A stretch of DNA of 44,773 nucleotides from an uncultured Chlorobiaceae bacterium. Lineage in GTDB: Bacteria > Bacteroidota > Chlorobiia > Chlorobiales > Chlorobiaceae. Location: assembly GCA_903871235.1 (NCBI GenBank), contig CAIQGA010000135.1, positions 1-44,773 of the forward strand. The letters are read 5' to 3'. The notes under the pieces are model-generated. The model ran no database searches. It saw only the letters and a program-made list of their open reading frames with translations, and had not been told where the DNA came from. The stretch's first letter is position 1; each line of letters starts with the position of its first letter. Of the stretch, positions 12,670 through 44,773 are shown piece after piece. The translations under genes were made by a program, and so were the position numbers.

Positions 12670-13194
12670 TTACCGCTTTTTGTAACCCACTCTTGCAATC
12701 AGAAAAATCAAACCCACAATCAATGATGCCGCTATACCGGCAGCGATATTGAAGAGGGCTGCAAGCAGAACAACAGGTACCGTCAAATCAACCACAAAGC
12801 CAAGCATAGCTGAGCTTCCGAGAAAGGTCACGGCTGTCAGGGCTGTAAAGAAAAAACTGGTTGCAAGACTTCCGGCAAAAGAGATAAAAATTTTCTCTCC
12901 CTTCCCTTCTGAAATGTTCTGCCACCGCGCAATCTGTTTCTGGCCTCCCGGCTCAAACCTGTTTTTCACCATCATGGCTACAAGCGCGAAGAGAATCAAC
13001 ACACCAACCTGAACGGCATACACCATTCTCTGCTCGCTCCCCGACGGGTTGAAAGAGCCCTCCTGGAGTTGATACACGGCAAGTTGCAGCATAAAAATCG
13101 ACGTCCAGTAAAAAACCGTGCCCCAAAGCAGGGTCACCAAAACCCAGATTGCCACGCCAGGCGGTTTTGAAGTTTTTTGTGTCATTGCTGCCAT
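12670..13194 (-). CDS. Unknown integral membrane protein, four helices
   Basis: 174 residues with four clear hydrophobic segments at about 15-40, 63-82, 103-130 and 134-167. A hydrophilic loop (about 83-100) contains KNRFEPGGQKQIARWQ and EGKGEK. No motif that I recognise is present, and it has no cysteines or charged residues suggestive of catalysis or metal binding inside the helices. The ATG at 13194 has AAGGA upstream; an ATG three codons later is an alternative. It is divergent from purF, about 300 bases away. A function cannot be assigned. Confidence 0.65.
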   Translation of the reverse strand: MAAMTQKTSKPPGVAIWVLVTLLWGTVFYWTSIFMLQLAVYQLQEGSFNPSGSEQRMVYAVQVGVLILFALVAMMVKNRFEPGGQKQIARWQNISEGKGEKIFISFAGSLATSFFFTALTAVTFLGSSAMLGFVVDLTVPVVLLAALFNIAAGIAASLIVGLIFLIARVGYKKR

Positions 13195-13321
13195 TTGTGA
13201 ATATTCCTTGTGAATGAATTATTTGAGAAGCCCAAAAGCAATCTTTCGCTTTCGAAAATATAACCCTCTTCATGAAAAAGACAATCCTCAGGGCAAACGA
13301 AGCAAAATAAGTAAAGAGTCA

Positions 13322-39903: not shown

Positions 39904-40659
39904 CTACACCACAACAATACCTGCCGAAAAACTGTACCCGTTACCATGTGACGTATGGATTGGCGACTGGCTTGAAACGGCCTCAATTTTTTGACGCAGG
40001 CGCTTGACAAGCGATTCAAGGGAGCTGTTGCCCGACTCATTATTGATGTAGCCCAGATTTTTCAGAAGAGTAGTGCGCGGCACCACCTGCTTCTGGCAGG
40101 CAACAAGCAAGGTCAAAAAATCAAATTCTTTCGATGTAAGCTTGATACACTCCTGCTGTGGCGTCACCAGTTGCCAGTGCATGCCAACAAGTTTCCAGAA
40201 GAGGGAATCAGAATCCTCTGCGAGCTGCTTTTTGCGTGCGACATGCAACGGCGGCTGAGCCACCAGTTCATCACTCCGGTTGAGAAGCGTTTTGATGGCC
40301 GCAACAAGCTCACGAAAATCGACCGGCTTCGACAGATAAAGATCGGCACCCGAATCATAACCGGCAAGCCGGTCGTTGATGGTTGAAAAACCCGTCAACA
40401 TGATAATCCGCATATCGGTATTTTTTCTCAGATATGCAGCAAGCTCCAGACCACTCTGGTCAGGAAGGCCGACATCAAGAATGGCAAGCTCAAAAGAGTC
40501 CTCAATGCGCTGATAAAAATCAAAAACCGTTGAAACCGCCGTCACGTCATACCCGGCAAAGGTCAAATAATGGACAATGAGTTTCAGGAACTCCAGCTCA
40601 TCGTCAACGACGATAACACGCCGCCGAGTACTTTCCAATATTTCGTTTTGAGGTATCAT
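39904..40659 (-). CDS. OmpR-type response regulator
   Basis: 251 residues from the ATG at 40659 (MIPQNEILES). The receiver domain shows VIVVDDE (acidic Asp19/Asp20), phospho-acceptor Asp62 in AILDVGLPDQSG and Lys111 in YLSKPVDF. After a linker, the winged-helix domain has IKLTSKEFDFLTLLVACQKQ, TTLLKNLGY and SLESLVKRLRQKIE. It should bind DNA after phosphorylation. No kinase is adjacent; two orphan kinases lie 7-14 kb away. It starts 29 bases after the stop of the giant surface-protein gene on the same strand, so it may be partly co-transcribed with it. Confidence 0.9.
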   Translation of the reverse strand: MIPQNEILESTRRRVIVVDDELEFLKLIVHYLTFAGYDVTAVSTVFDFYQRIEDSFELAILDVGLPDQSGLELAAYLRKNTDMRIIMLTGFSTINDRLAGYDSGADLYLSKPVDFRELVAAIKTLLNRSDELVAQPPLHVARKKQLAEDSDSLFWKLVGMHWQLVTPQQECIKLTSKEFDFLTLLVACQKQVVPRTTLLKNLGYINNESGNSSLESLVKRLRQKIEAVSSQSPIHTSHGNGYSFSAGIVVV

Positions 40660-40688: not shown

Positions 40689-43226
40689 TCAATGAGTCAG
40701 CGCCCAACTGCCATCAACATCACCCTTGACAATGCCAATCAACTGCAATGTATGATCCTGCTCCAACGTAAGTGGCAACGGATTGTCCGGCCAGACAACA
40801 TGGCTTCTCGTCATACTCTCACTGCCCACACTGTCGGGCACAAAAATCCACTCACTTGCAGGCGCTGTTTCGAGATGCACCGCCATCCTCAGGATATTGA
40901 GGGCATCAGCGGATTTGACGAAACCATCCCTGTTGATATCAGCCGCAAGGTACTGGTAAGGGGATATGGCACTCCCGTCAAGATTGGGATTCAACCCCAC
41001 GGCCATCTTGAGTGCGGCGAGAGCGTCATTTGCATCAACGGCGCTGATTTCGGCCGTACTGGCAACTTTGGCACTGCTCAGGGTGTAGGTTCCCTCATTC
41101 ATCGTGATGGACTGATAGTGGCCATCACTGCCGGTGGTCATCGTGTCGAACGCTATTCCGAAAGGAGAAACGGTATCGCTGTCCAAATCACCTGCACTCA
41201 AAATGAGTTCAAAGTGATCCGGAATGGCTGGCGCCGTAAGCGTCAGGGTTCCGAGTTTTACCGGCCCGGCTGACAAGGGTGTGAAACCCATGCCACCAAA
41301 AATAAACTGTCCGGGAGTCTCTGCATTGCTTGCAGTAATCCATCCCGATAACCCGGCGGCACTCTGCCATGCTGCCACTGATCCTGCCGGCAAGGCAAAT
41401 TCCAGCCGCACACTATCAATAGTGCTCTTTGTCGAGGTCTCCCAGATCTCTATGGTACGGCTGCCATCGGCCAAAAGCTGTATGTTCCTGAATTCGACCA
41501 GTTGAGTAGGCGCCGGCACTGAAGCAAGAGAGGTCGTAACGCCTGTAATAGCCTCACCGGTTTTCCAGAAAATCGCCCCGCCGCCCACCTCATGGGTAGC
41601 AATCACCGTCGTAAAATCGTAGGTGCCGGAATCGACAAAATGGTTTCCCGCTGCATCCTCAATGCTCCCGTCAGCCAGCGTGACGAAGTAATGGGTGCCA
41701 TTCAGCAAATCATCGGCAGGATTGATGGTCAAGGTCGAGCCCGAAATTGTTGCAGAACTCCCCACAACCGGCCCATTGGCCGAGCCACTGTGAATAGCTA
41801 TGGCCGCCCCCCCCGTCTGAATCGCTTCACTGAAATGCAGCACAATATCGCTGCCAATCGCAACATCGGCGGCCCCGTCACCCGGAGTGCACGACGTGAG
41901 AGTTGGAGCCAAAAGATCATCCGTACCGGCAATGGTTACCGTCACCGCCTGCGGTGTACCATCGGCAGCAGTCACCGTGAAACTGTCGGTGTAGTGCTGC
42001 CCACCCACAAACTCGCTGTGCGCACTGTCTGCAAGGTAGCTCCACACACCACCAGAGGTCATACTGAACGTCCCGAAGCCATGATTGCCCGCCACATCGG
42101 TCTGCGCAACAAAAAGGTTCGCCGTACCATCAACATCGGTCGAAGTAAGCGTACCCGTCGCCGTAAGCGGTATGTCGGTCTCAGTAAGGCTCACCGAACT
42201 CGTGCCACTGATGACCGCCGGGTCGTTTGTACCCGCGATGGCGACCGTCGCAGTCTGGGCAGTCAAGCCGCCCTGGCCATCAGAGATGGTGTAACTGGCA
42301 ACAATGGTTACATGCTGGCCAAGCGCAAGATGGTCAAAGAGCGCATCTGAGGGGTTCACCCGCAAACCAGTGCCCGACAACGTGACTCCCGACGGCAAAT
42401 CACGAGCCAAATTTCCGGTTGGCGCACCATCCACCATGTAGGTAAGGGTGCCGAGAGTCAACGTCCCTCCATCAGCATCAGAAGCCCCACCCAAAAGGTT
42501 CAGGGTATAAGCCGCATAACCTTCACTCACATTGCTTGTCAAAGCACCCAACACTGTCGGAGCATCATTCGTACCAGCAATAGTAACGGTGATTCGCTCC
42601 GTAATCTTGCCATCAGCAGATGCGGCAAAAAAAGTGTCGGTATAGTCATGGCTGGCAACAAACTCATTGTGAGCCGTGTTCGCCGTATAACTCCACACAC
42701 CGGAAGTCGTGACGCCAAAACTGCCATAGCCATTGTCACCAGCCACATTCGAGCGGGCAACAAAGAGAGGTGTTCCCGAGGACGAGGTACCCAAAACCCC
42801 TGTGGCAGTGAGCGCCGCATCAGTTTCAATCAACGTGCAAAGTGCGGGAAGCCCTCCCGACATCACAAGAGCAGTGCTATTGTAACCCAATCCCGTCCCC
42901 TTCACAAGCGCAGCACTAAAGCCGCTGCTCTCTGTAACTGAAAAGCTGATGGTCTCCAGCAAAAGATCAGCACCTCCACTGTTCAATGGAGTCGAAAATG
43001 AAAAACCACCATCATAAAACTCGCCTGCAACAGCAAAATTGCTCATCATATACCAGCCTGTAAATGCCGCAGGATTACGCGTCACGCTAAGCCAGGTGGC
43101 CCTGGAAAAATCGTAGGCCAGAACCAGATCAATGCCAGTCGCAACAACACCAGCCTTCAACCAAACCTGAAGATCCAGGCCAGCGGCAGTAGAATGCGTC
43201 TTGAGCTCAAGCACAGAATTTTGCAT
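40689..43226 (-). CDS. Large repeat-containing surface/secreted protein, VCBS-cadherin-like with cohesin/dockerin-like tail
   Basis: 845 residues, no Sec signal at the N-terminus (MQNSVLELKTHSTAAGL), which suggests type I secretion or similar. Order: cohesin-like region (about 15-60); VCBS-type repeat ending TIAGTNDAP; cadherin-like DADGGTLTLGTLTYMVDG block; a second VCBS repeat ending TIAGTDD; and a Big/SwmB-like domain (FSEAIQTGGAAIAIHSG, then NHFVDSGTYDF). A cohesin-like domain (about 580-720) follows, then a dockerin-like EF-hand region with AADINRDGFVKSADALNILR. The end reads LQLIGIVKGDVDGSWALTH. The neighbour at 43336-44773 shares the tail. Probable roles are adhesion or a surface layer; no enzyme domain is seen. 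Confidence 0.85.
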   Translation of the reverse strand: MQNSVLELKTHSTAAGLDLQVWLKAGVVATGIDLVLAYDFSRATWLSVTRNPAAFTGWYMMSNFAVAGEFYDGGFSFSTPLNSGGADLLLETISFSVTESSGFSAALVKGTGLGYNSTALVMSGGLPALCTLIETDAALTATGVLGTSSSGTPLFVARSNVAGDNGYGSFGVTTSGVWSYTANTAHNEFVASHDYTDTFFAASADGKITERITVTIAGTNDAPTVLGALTSNVSEGYAAYTLNLLGGASDADGGTLTLGTLTYMVDGAPTGNLARDLPSGVTLSGTGLRVNPSDALFDHLALGQHVTIVASYTISDGQGGLTAQTATVAIAGTNDPAVISGTSSVSLTETDIPLTATGTLTSTDVDGTANLFVAQTDVAGNHGFGTFSMTSGGVWSYLADSAHSEFVGGQHYTDSFTVTAADGTPQAVTVTIAGTDDLLAPTLTSCTPGDGAADVAIGSDIVLHFSEAIQTGGAAIAIHSGSANGPVVGSSATISGSTLTINPADDLLNGTHYFVTLADGSIEDAAGNHFVDSGTYDFTTVIATHEVGGGAIFWKTGEAITGVTTSLASVPAPTQLVEFRNIQLLADGSRTIEIWETSTKSTIDSVRLEFALPAGSVAAWQSAAGLSGWITASNAETPGQFIFGGMGFTPLSAGPVKLGTLTLTAPAIPDHFELILSAGDLDSDTVSPFGIAFDTMTTGSDGHYQSITMNEGTYTLSSAKVASTAEISAVDANDALAALKMAVGLNPNLDGSAISPYQYLAADINRDGFVKSADALNILRMAVHLETAPASEWIFVPDSVGSESMTRSHVVWPDNPLPLTLEQDHTLQLIGIVKGDVDGSWALTH

Positions 43227-43335
43227 GGTAAAAGGGTTTAAGCATCACAAGGATGCTCCCGGAAATCATTGTTGCAAACGACTCCCGGAAACATCCTCAT
43301 GTTACCATTTCTTTTCAAGAATTACCAGAAAAGAA
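43227..43335. promoter_or_regulatory. Spacer between the two giant genes with dyads and a direct repeat
   Basis: Just past the upstream gene's stop, TTCTTTTC (43309-43316) and GAAAAGAA (43328-43335) form an 8-bp AT-rich stem without a following T-run. CTCCCGGAAA occurs twice (43256-43265 and 43282-43291), 26 bases apart. Near the next start AGCATC/GATGCT forms a small hairpin. These may act as a weak terminator plus an operator or leader for the downstream gene. Confidence 0.35.
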
Positions 43336-44773
43336 TTATACCACGGCGTGCCAGCTTCCGTTCACATCTCCCGAAACAACACCAATCAACTGCAAGTCTA
43401 AGTTGTGATTTTCATCAAAAACTGTGCCGTGATCGAGAGTGACAGAAACCGACGTTGCTGACCAATTGACGGCATTACCGTTGCCCAAATCTGCCAGCGC
43501 CATATCTCCATTCACAAACACCCACGCAGGATCCGTAGTGTGAACAGCCATACCCATGATCGCCGGTGTATCTACAGAATTGCTCACTACTCCATCTTTA
43601 TTGATATCAGCCGCAAAAAGCTCATAACCAGTATGTCCAAGCTTGTTTGCAACTATTTGAGCAGCAAGAATAGCATCTGTGGATGTAACCGTATGAGTTG
43701 CAGGATCAATAGAACTTGCCACTTTGGCTGCACTCAAGGTGTAATTCCCCAGTTCCAGTCCATCAAACTTGACTGAACCAATAGCATCAGTCATCTGAAC
43801 AGTAGGTTCTACCGTAAAAGAGGTAAGAAGATGCAACACATCAGCGGCGTTCAATTCACCATAGGACAACGTAATAGCACCTCCACTCAAACCTGCATCA
43901 GGAGTCTGATATGTTGTCGTCAGGGTGCCAAGTAGGACATCTCCATCCGCCAACACGCCCGCTCCTGTATTCAAGGCTACCACCGTAAGAGTCTCTGGAG
44001 CAGCGCCCAAATTACTCGTAGTACTGAGCCATCCAGTAGTCTGTATTGCATTCGCAGCAGTCCAGGTCGTAACTGTTGAATCCGCAAGCGAAAAATCAAG
44101 CTCAAGGTTATTAATGCCTGCTCCCGCAATCTTGTGAACCTCGTAGGTTGCAGTGGTATAAGCGCCATTTTGAACAAACGCCATGTTTTTCAACTGAATA
44201 TCACTGTTTCCTGCGGTCCCTACCAGGCAAACCGCGACACCTTCCAACGCTCCATTACCAGCACCCCAGAAATTAACCTGTTCCGTGATTGAGTACGTTT
44301 GACCGGTGATGTGTATCTTCTCCGTTTGAGAAACCGGTGTATGACCATCCGTAACCTGATAAGAGGCTATGATGTCGAGGGTATCAGATTCAGTCATATG
44401 GATGTAGGCAGCGTTGTTCGTATCAACCCTCAGCTCGTTACCAACGATGGTCACTCCCGCAGGCAATTCATGACCGCCATTTCCGGTTGCCGCACCACCA
44501 ACAGTATAGGTGACACTTCCATCAACGACACTCAATTGATCTGTAACATCAACATCATGGACACTTACTGTAAGGTCATGAGTCTGGGTACCGGTGCCTT
44601 CGGTTACGTCGTTGGTATGCGCAGCCTGTACTTCCGGTGCATCGTTCGTCCCGGTAATGGTCACGACAACATCCTGCGTCGCTGTCGCGCTCGACGTATC
44701 GGTAACCGTGACGGTGTAGGTCTGCGTCAGCGTTTCGCCTGCGGCAAGGTAATCGACCGCACTGTCGGCCACC
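43336..44773 (-). CDS. C-terminal part of a giant VCBS-repeat surface protein (cut by right edge)
   Basis: 479 codons are open to the window end, and the gene continues beyond it. Visible: a VCBS-type repeat (TVTDTSSATATQDVVVTITG then TNDAPEV); a block like that of the neighbour (SVTYTVGGAATGNGGHELPA, NELRVDTNNAAYIHM); a cohesin-like domain (about 160-320); and a dockerin-like region with FAADINKDGVVSN. The end reads LQLIGVVSGDVNGSWHAVV. The tail parallels that of the 845-residue neighbour, so the two are tandem paralogues. The first visible Met-like codon is GTG inside a repeat and is not the real start. Likely secreted or displayed; export signals are not visible. Confidence 0.82.
   Translation of the reverse strand, partial: VADSAVDYLAAGETLTQTYTVTVTDTSSATATQDVVVTITGTNDAPEVQAAHTNDVTEGTGTQTHDLTVSVHDVDVTDQLSVVDGSVTYTVGGAATGNGGHELPAGVTIVGNELRVDTNNAAYIHMTESDTLDIIASYQVTDGHTPVSQTEKIHITGQTYSITEQVNFWGAGNGALEGVAVCLVGTAGNSDIQLKNMAFVQNGAYTTATYEVHKIAGAGINNLELDFSLADSTVTTWTAANAIQTTGWLSTTSNLGAAPETLTVVALNTGAGVLADGDVLLGTLTTTYQTPDAGLSGGAITLSYGELNAADVLHLLTSFTVEPTVQMTDAIGSVKFDGLELGNYTLSAAKVASSIDPATHTVTSTDAILAAQIVANKLGHTGYELFAADINKDGVVSNSVDTPAIMGMAVHTTDPAWVFVNGDMALADLGNGNAVNWSATSVSVTLDHGTVFDENHNLDLQLIGVVSGDVNGSWHAVV

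What the first reader, a model, noticed from the sequence alone, without database searches (positions are those of the whole stretch)
40689..44773. Tandem giant proteins share a cohesin-like plus dockerin-like tail and a GDV(D/N)GSW terminus
Both end with a cohesin-like domain, an AADIN(R/K)DG EF-hand region, a LQLIG(I/V)V segment and a GDVxGSW motif. The first lacks a Sec signal. Having both partner types in one polypeptide suggests self- or cross-assembly on the cell surface through calcium-dependent pairs. The conserved terminus may be a secretion or assembly tag. The domain order appears little described in phototrophs.
Basis: partly seen in the sequence, partly recalled or inferred. Interest (0 to 1): 0.6.

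Follow-up and report, generated by a model that had tools for sequence, protein, structure and literature searches.

The report
Shared cohesin–dockerin tail on giant proteins
Giant surface proteins of green sulfur bacteria end in one shared, probably calcium-binding tail that combines both halves of the cohesin–dockerin molecular plug-and-socket, and it sits on proteins that appear to leave the cell through a type I exporter.

Summary
Both window proteins end in one homologous ~300-residue module, and the same genome has six copies, each ending in GDV(D/N)GSW. The organism is probably a Chlorobiaceae bacterium. A predicted structure (pLDDT 94.5) and fold comparison show a cohesin-fold domain inserted in a prealbumin-like domain. 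A dockerin-like domain with one complete, invariant calcium loop follows, then the closing segment. The module occurs in 23 of 86 family genomes, up to 27 per genome, on very different cargo. In 88 of 88 countable family tails it is the extreme C-terminus. No complete tail protein examined has a Sec signal. In one closed genome a tail gene lies just upstream of a PrtD-type type I secretion operon. Two refinements matter. Some tails lack the cohesin but keep the rest, so the cohesin is optional. In other Bacteroidota the same module is followed by a T9SS sorting domain, and in proteobacterial RTX proteins by ~32 further residues. GDVxGSW is therefore the closing piece of the dockerin-like domain, not a universal secretion tag. 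Whether these cohesins bind these dockerins is untested. This is a new variant of known kinds (type I-secreted adhesins; non-cellulosomal cohesin/dockerin modules).

The parts
40689..43226 (-). ORF2, 845 aa: N-terminal cohesin-like domain, VCBS repeats, Big_5 Ig-like domain, C-terminal tail; no Sec signal
   Evidence: ORF list; Pfam/NCBIfam VCBS E 8e-37 and Big_5 E 3e-20; N-terminal cohesin-like domain
42840..43217 (-). second cohesin-like domain, at the N-terminus of ORF2
   Evidence: A profile built from this domain and its relatives also finds the tail cohesin of the same protein, E 7e-15; further copies in related genomes. Fold not predicted separately
41607..41909 (-). Big_5 Ig-like domain just before the tail
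   Evidence: Pfam PF13205, 73.1 bits
40692..41591 (-). ORF2 C-terminal tail module (whole)
   Evidence: Profile hits; AlphaFold2 model pLDDT 94.5
41514..41600 (-). prealbumin/CarboxypepD_reg-like domain, first part (GGGAIFWKTGEAI...)
   Evidence: Cohesin-less tails run straight from this part to the second part; CarboxypepD_reg over cut-off in relative L035
41139..41513 (-). cohesin-fold domain inserted in the prealbumin-like domain
   Evidence: VIA-align Z 11.8, rmsd 2.7, 121 aligned to cohesin 6kgf_A; most of the best 30 rows are cohesins
41067..41138 (-). prealbumin/CarboxypepD_reg-like domain, second part (DGHYQ...GTYTLSSAK)
   Evidence: Contiguous with the first part in cohesin-less tails
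40872..41066 (-). dockerin-like domain
   Evidence: Dockerin_1 matched from profile position 10; profile A3 best PDB hits are dockerins, E 1e-4; all 16 VIA rows are dockerins
40905..40940 (-). complete calcium loop DINRDGFVKSAD (positions 1,3,5,6,12 = D,N,D,G,D)
   Evidence: Those five positions invariant in 44 of 44 Chlorobiaceae rows
40704..40742 (-). closing segment LIGIVKGDVDGSW at the C-terminus of ORF2
   Evidence: 82% mean pairwise identity among 44 rows, the highest of any part of the tail
43336..44772 (-). ORF1, truncated at the contig edge; C-terminal 478 aa of a VCBS-type giant protein
43339..44298 (-). ORF1 C-terminal tail module (divergent member, 31% identical to the ORF2 tail)
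43351..43395 (-). closing segment LQLIGVVSGDVNGSW of ORF1
39904..40656 (-). OmpR-type response regulator immediately downstream of ORF2; no terminator-like site on this strand between them
   Evidence: Pfam; 46% identical to a regulator beside a HlyB-type T1SS on contig C224; scan

Best explanation
The tail is one shared C-terminal docking module on a family of Sec-independent, type I-exported giant surface proteins and enzymes. Its constant part is a prealbumin-like strap followed by a dockerin-like domain closed by the GDV(D/N)GSW segment; its optional part is a cohesin-fold domain inserted in the strap. Proposed mechanism: the extreme C-terminus carries or overlaps the type I export signal and enters a PrtD-type ABC transporter with HlyD and TolC first (inferred). 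Outside, calcium fills the invariant dockerin loop and the tail folds (inferred from loop conservation). The folded dockerin then holds the protein to a common surface partner, possibly the cohesins of sister proteins (inferred, weakest step). The module anatomy is shown by prediction and comparison; export route and docking are inferred.
For: Six tails in the genome on unrelated bodies (alkaline phosphatase, RTX repeats, DUF4347-like start with FG-GAP-like repeats, delta-60-type repeats, VCBS). In 88 of 88 countable Chlorobiaceae tails at most 5 residues follow the match. No complete tail protein examined has a hydrophobic N-terminal signal; the one flagged is a wrong start. In closed genome G075 the 4661-aa tail gene is followed by two PrtD-type ABC proteins, HlyD and a TolC-like protein that scores just under the TIGR01844 cut-off. 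G036 has a tail cluster beside a T1SS. PrtD over cut-off in 20 of 23 tail genomes. T9SS sorting domain absent from this genome and practically from the family. Cohesin and dockerin folds. Dockerin and terminus are the most conserved parts (68% and 82% identity against 49% for cohesin) and dN/dS is lowest in the dockerin (0.10 against 0.18).
Against: G225 has 8 tails, is 98% complete and shows no PrtD- or HlyD-type T1SS over cut-off, though it is in 290 pieces; G218 and G233 also lack it. T1SS presence alone does not separate tail genomes from others (20/23 against 43/63, Fisher p = 0.10). In the window's own genome the PrtD operon is on another contig, not beside a tail. No binding partner is identified. 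The same module precedes T9SS domains elsewhere, so it is not itself an export signal in general.
Confidence: 0.6

Rival explanations
1. Calcium-dependent self- or cross-assembly: the cohesin of one tail protein binds the dockerin of another, so the paralogous giants daisy-chain into a surface network.
For: Both folds are present in most tails. Dockerin is on every tail and cohesin on many, and ORF2 has a second cohesin-like domain. Genomes hold up to 27 tail copies. Cohesin-less and cohesin-bearing tails coexist in G234 and G237.
Against: No pairing was modelled or measured. Sequence identity to known cohesins is about 10%. G075 has a single tail. The cohesin-like jelly roll also serves other roles (adhesin domains such as 9ifr and fungal Als adhesins are among the matches).
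Confidence: 0.3
2. The tail is only a calcium-folded cap: it folds on exit, helps pull the long chain through the type I channel and protects the end, without any partner.
For: Invariant calcium loop and closing segment; extreme C-terminal position; RTX-type substrates are kept unfolded at low cytosolic calcium and use calcium-binding repeats in translocation (RTX review PMC3034196). Some tail proteins, ORF2 among them, show no RTX repeat in Pfam.
Against: Does not explain an inserted cohesin-fold domain, nor retention of the module upstream of T9SS sorting domains in other Bacteroidota.
Confidence: 0.3
3. GDV(D/N)GSW is an independent sorting tag, like a T9SS or CTERM signal, read by a dedicated enzyme or transporter.
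For: Near-invariant terminus, 88 of 88 at the very end in Chlorobiaceae, on diverse cargo.
Against: The same segment is internal in T9SS proteins (219-240 residues from the end) and 31-33 residues from the end in proteobacterial RTX proteins; it is well ordered in the model as part of the fold (block 291-300 pLDDT 88).
Confidence: 0.1

Closest known systems
Dockerin type I (Pfam PF00404) and cellulosomal dockerins
   Same: Fold, second calcium loop D-x-N-x-D-G-x-V-x-x-x-D, two loop-helix units
   Different: First loop lacks its first half (Dockerin_1 matches start at profile position 6-10); a further segment ending in GDVxGSW is appended; not on clostridial cellulosome enzymes
Cohesin modules, especially non-cellulosomal ones (Clostridium perfringens 2vo8/2jh2, Archaeoglobus 2xdh)
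   Same: Fold (VIA Z 10-12 over ~120 residues)
   Different: About 10% identity; inserted inside a prealbumin-like domain; on the same chain as a dockerin
Type I-secreted giant adhesins of green sulfur bacteria (Prosthecochloris cluster, PMC7762298)
   Same: Giant repetitive protein next to TolC, ABC and HlyD genes in green sulfur bacteria
   Different: That paper does not mention cohesin or dockerin (searched); here one tail is shared by adhesin-like proteins and enzymes
Prealbumin/CarboxypepD_reg + dockerin + GDVNG module before T9SS type A sorting domains in other Bacteroidota
   Same: Same order of domains and closing segment
   Different: There it is upstream of a T9SS sorting domain and has no cohesin insert in the examples seen; here it is terminal

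Membership tests
Cohesin fold | Jelly-roll of about 120-140 residues matching solved cohesins | tested here: met
   VIA Z 11.8 (6kgf_A, rmsd 2.7, 121 aligned); most of the best 30 rows are cohesins; Foldseek best hit cohesin 2vo8, E 9e-5
Cohesin fold | Binds a dockerin | not testable with these tools
   No complex prediction or assay available
Dockerin type I | Two loop-helix EF-hand-like units in dockerin topology | tested here: met
   All 16 VIA rows are dockerins (best Z 5.3, 62 aligned, rmsd 3.6; Z is low in absolute terms, the domain being small); profile hits dockerins in the PDB at E 1e-4
Dockerin type I | Two complete calcium loops | tested here: not met
   Second loop complete and invariant; first loop lacks ligands 1, 3, 5 in sequence. 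The terminal GDV(D/N)GS may supply them, untested in structure
Dockerin type I | Pfam PF00404 curated cut-off (22.9 bits) | tested here: inconclusive
   Window proteins 15.2-19.8 bits, below; relatives L080 (27.4 in the whole protein), L033 (35.6) and L035 (24.4) above
Cellulosome | Separate scaffoldin with cohesin arrays and dockerin-bearing plant-polymer enzymes | tested here: inconclusive
   With a profile of the N-terminal cohesin-like type, six genomes showed cohesin-like domains once or twice per frame and no array; other cohesin types were not searched
Type I secretion substrates | No Sec signal | tested here: met
   No true hydrophobic N-terminus among the complete tail proteins, by a simple hydropathy test
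Type I secretion substrates | Genetic linkage to ABC/HlyD/TolC genes | tested here: met
   G075 (next to the operon) and G036 (same contig, ~6-16 kb); not linked in the window's own genome
Type I secretion substrates | C-terminal export signal shown to work | not testable with these tools
   Needs an export assay
T9SS cargo | TIGR04183-type sorting domain | tested here: not met
   None in this genome; one marginal hit over cut-off in 86 family genomes

The most novel reading that the evidence does not exclude
Green sulfur bacteria carry a non-cellulosomal cohesin-dockerin surface network: every protein of this type I-exported set bears a dockerin, most also bear a cohesin, and they plug into each other. 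The dockerin itself would be of a new form whose first calcium loop is split, its first half supplied by the chain's own C-terminus (GDV(D/N)GS) and its second half by the first helix unit.
Probability: 0.2. Interest if true: 0.72.

Novelty: new variant of a known kind. Interest (0 to 1): 0.45.

Why it matters
Green sulfur bacteria form cell–cell consortia and are known for giant genes of uncertain function. A single tail shared by adhesin-like proteins and enzymes gives a handle on how these proteins are exported and held at the surface. It also gives a sequence signature for finding the rest of that set in a genome. If the cohesins bind the dockerins, this would be a cohesin–dockerin system in a phototroph, separate from plant-polymer degradation.

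Tried and rejected
(1) GDVxGSW as a stand-alone tag: rejected because it is internal in T9SS and RTX relatives and never seen without a tail. (2) T9SS export: rejected for this family. (3) T1SS presence as a predictor of tails: weak (p = 0.10). (4) Split calcium loop: grafting the terminal motif before the first hand raised Dockerin_1 from 19.4 to 29.3 (ORF2), 19.8 to 34.0 (ORF1) and 38.2 to 49.8 bits (L033), but a scrambled motif still gave 26.0, and an internal NPNxDG segment often resembles the second loop more (the terminus ranks 1-10). Kept as a hypothesis only. (5) Literature: nine searches found no description of this tail in Chlorobium or Pelodictyon; the Peer et al. review on non-cellulosomal modules is not held. 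(7) The ORF1 tail alone and any pair were not modelled: two jobs only, no complexes.
Full report
Observation. The window is the complete contig C135 of a 3.3-Mb, 234-contig genome. The outer ORF (ORF1, 43336-44772) therefore runs off the contig inside a VCBS repeat; the end of contig C158 carries an 88% similar repeat and a plausible N-terminal half without a Sec signal. The organism is most likely a Chlorobiaceae bacterium: the closest tails are all in Chlorobiaceae records and the window encodes BchF. A profile built from relatives only, without the two window proteins, detects both tails (E 4e-132 and 4e-38) and no other ORF of the window.

Anatomy. The tail of ORF2 was modelled with 53 sequences at mean pLDDT 94.5. 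Residues 30-154 of the 303-residue segment match solved cohesins (best Z 11.8, rmsd 2.7, 121 aligned; most of the best thirty rows are cohesins). The flanks (1-29 and 155-178) form a prealbumin/CarboxypepD_reg-like domain into which the cohesin is inserted. The evidence for insertion is comparative: 22 non-redundant proteins match the later part of the profile without the cohesin, and the Chlorobiaceae ones among them run almost directly from 'GSVTFWKTGAAIADITST' to 'DGLYQHLDMEDGTYTLTS'; 64 others have the cohesin. (The 22 include four other Bacteroidota and one proteobacterial protein.) Pfam finds CarboxypepD_reg and Dockerin_1 above cut-off in a Bacteroidota relative, L035. The dockerin-like part matches dockerins by profile (best PDB hits E 1e-4) and by fold (all 16 listed structures are dockerins, best Z 5.3 over 62 residues). 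Its second calcium loop is D-x-N-x-D-G-x-(V/I)-x-x-x-D, with the key positions invariant in 44 Chlorobiaceae rows; the first loop keeps only its last half. LIGIVKGDV(D/N)GSW closes the chain and is the most conserved stretch (82% mean pairwise identity; dockerin 68%, cohesin 49%). Selection is purifying throughout and strongest on the dockerin (median dN/dS 0.10 against 0.18 for the cohesin; many pairs are near saturation, so these are rough).

Distribution. The genome has six tails: C50 (3526-residue frame), C99 (2042), C84 (alkaline phosphatase), C207 (RTX) and two on C135. In the family, 23 of 86 genomes carry it, with 24 and 27 matches in the two richest genomes, fragments counted. A scan of one genome per species also gave diverged versions in Burkholderiales, Limnohabitans, Rhodospirillales and Beijerinckiaceae records. 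In 88 of 88 countable Chlorobiaceae tails the match ends 0-5 residues before the stop. In 10 of 12 proteobacterial ones 31-33 residues follow, and in four other Bacteroidota 219-240 residues follow. Of three such Bacteroidota proteins scanned, two carry a T9SS type A sorting domain above cut-off and the third is just below; the two proteobacterial ones scanned are RTX-repeat proteins. The module is therefore portable, and the lineage-specific sorting element comes after it where there is one.

Export. One search examined 42 records by its own counter and 40 were printed; none of those has a true hydrophobic N-terminal signal (the one flagged, L062, uses a start upstream of the conserved MAKTVVFIDSRVND start). 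In the closed genome G075 the 4661-residue tail gene is followed 1.3 kb downstream by two PrtD-type ABC genes, HlyD and a TolC-like gene. Its ABC proteins score 571 and 603 bits against a cut-off of 510; its TolC-like protein scores 223.3 against 225.15, just under. G036 has a cluster of tail genes and a T1SS on one contig. The window's own genome has the same four-gene set on C102, unlinked, and a HlyB-type set on C224 beside an RTX protein and a response regulator 46% identical to the one just downstream of ORF2. Twenty of 23 tail genomes have PrtD above cut-off. The exception that counts against the model is G225 (8 tails, 98% complete, 290 contigs, none above cut-off). The exporter is common in tail-less relatives too, so co-occurrence alone is weak (HlyD proxy, p = 0.10). 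T9SS signals are practically absent in the family. RTX-type substrates carry a ~60-residue unprocessed C-terminal signal (PMC3034196), which here would fall in the post-dockerin segment.

Mechanism. Shown by prediction and comparison: the anatomy, the extreme terminal position, the absence of Sec signals, and one clear adjacency to a type I operon. Inferred: type I export with the signal overlapping the tail; calcium-driven folding outside; docking through the dockerin. The cohesin cannot be the constant function because it is absent from a substantial minority of tails. A daisy-chain of sister proteins remains possible: every tail has a dockerin, many have a cohesin, and ORF2 has two cohesin-like domains.

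A further hypothesis concerns the terminus. Dockerin_1 matches in these proteins begin at profile position 6-10, i.e. the first half of loop 1 is missing, and GDV(D/N)GS resembles that half. Grafting it in front of the first hand raises the Dockerin_1 score by 10-14 bits in three proteins. A scrambled motif also raised it (26.0 against 29.3; native 19.4), and another segment (NPNxDG) often scores higher against the second loop. The split-loop idea is therefore unproven; coordinates of the model were not available to measure distances.

Known or new. Giant type I-linked adhesin clusters in green sulfur bacteria have been described (PMC7762298), as have non-cellulosomal cohesins and dockerins (Peer et al. 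2009, known to me by title and cited in PMC8542988; not held). No paper found in the held library describes this tail in Chlorobium. I file it as a new variant of a known kind.

Noticed in passing
L051:10525-10791 and 13018-13317; L055:3532-3966; L063:10212-10655; L097:2014-2319; L120:7523-7777: Short 5'-truncated tail copies (dockerin plus terminus, 85-150 codons) lie near intact tail genes in several Chlorobiaceae MAGs, next to toxin-antitoxin- and transposase-like ORFs in some cases; recombination debris or a reservoir of ends.
   Followed up: partly
L127:13660-19797; L128:12236-16000; L131:4314-7514: Other giant proteins in the same neighbourhoods end instead in a glycine-rich hydrophobic stretch such as GGSSGGISAGEMLAGVAGLGLLAFIIF, a second and different C-terminal type.
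   Followed up: no
window 39904-40656 and L130:8629-9357: Related OmpR-type response regulators (46% identical) sit directly after ORF2 and after a HlyB-type T1SS locus on contig C224, suggesting shared regulation of surface proteins.
   Followed up: partly
window 44623-44772 and L012 end (contig C158): Both contigs end in nearly the same VCBS repeat, so the assembly may break one giant gene in two.
   Followed up: partly
L013 (contig C122), minus strand, 2573-residue open frame: Giant protein with a DUF4347-like start, FG-GAP- and VCBS-like repeats, a GH16-like segment and RTX repeats, cut at the contig end; whether it also ends in the tail is unknown (read by eye).
   Followed up: no
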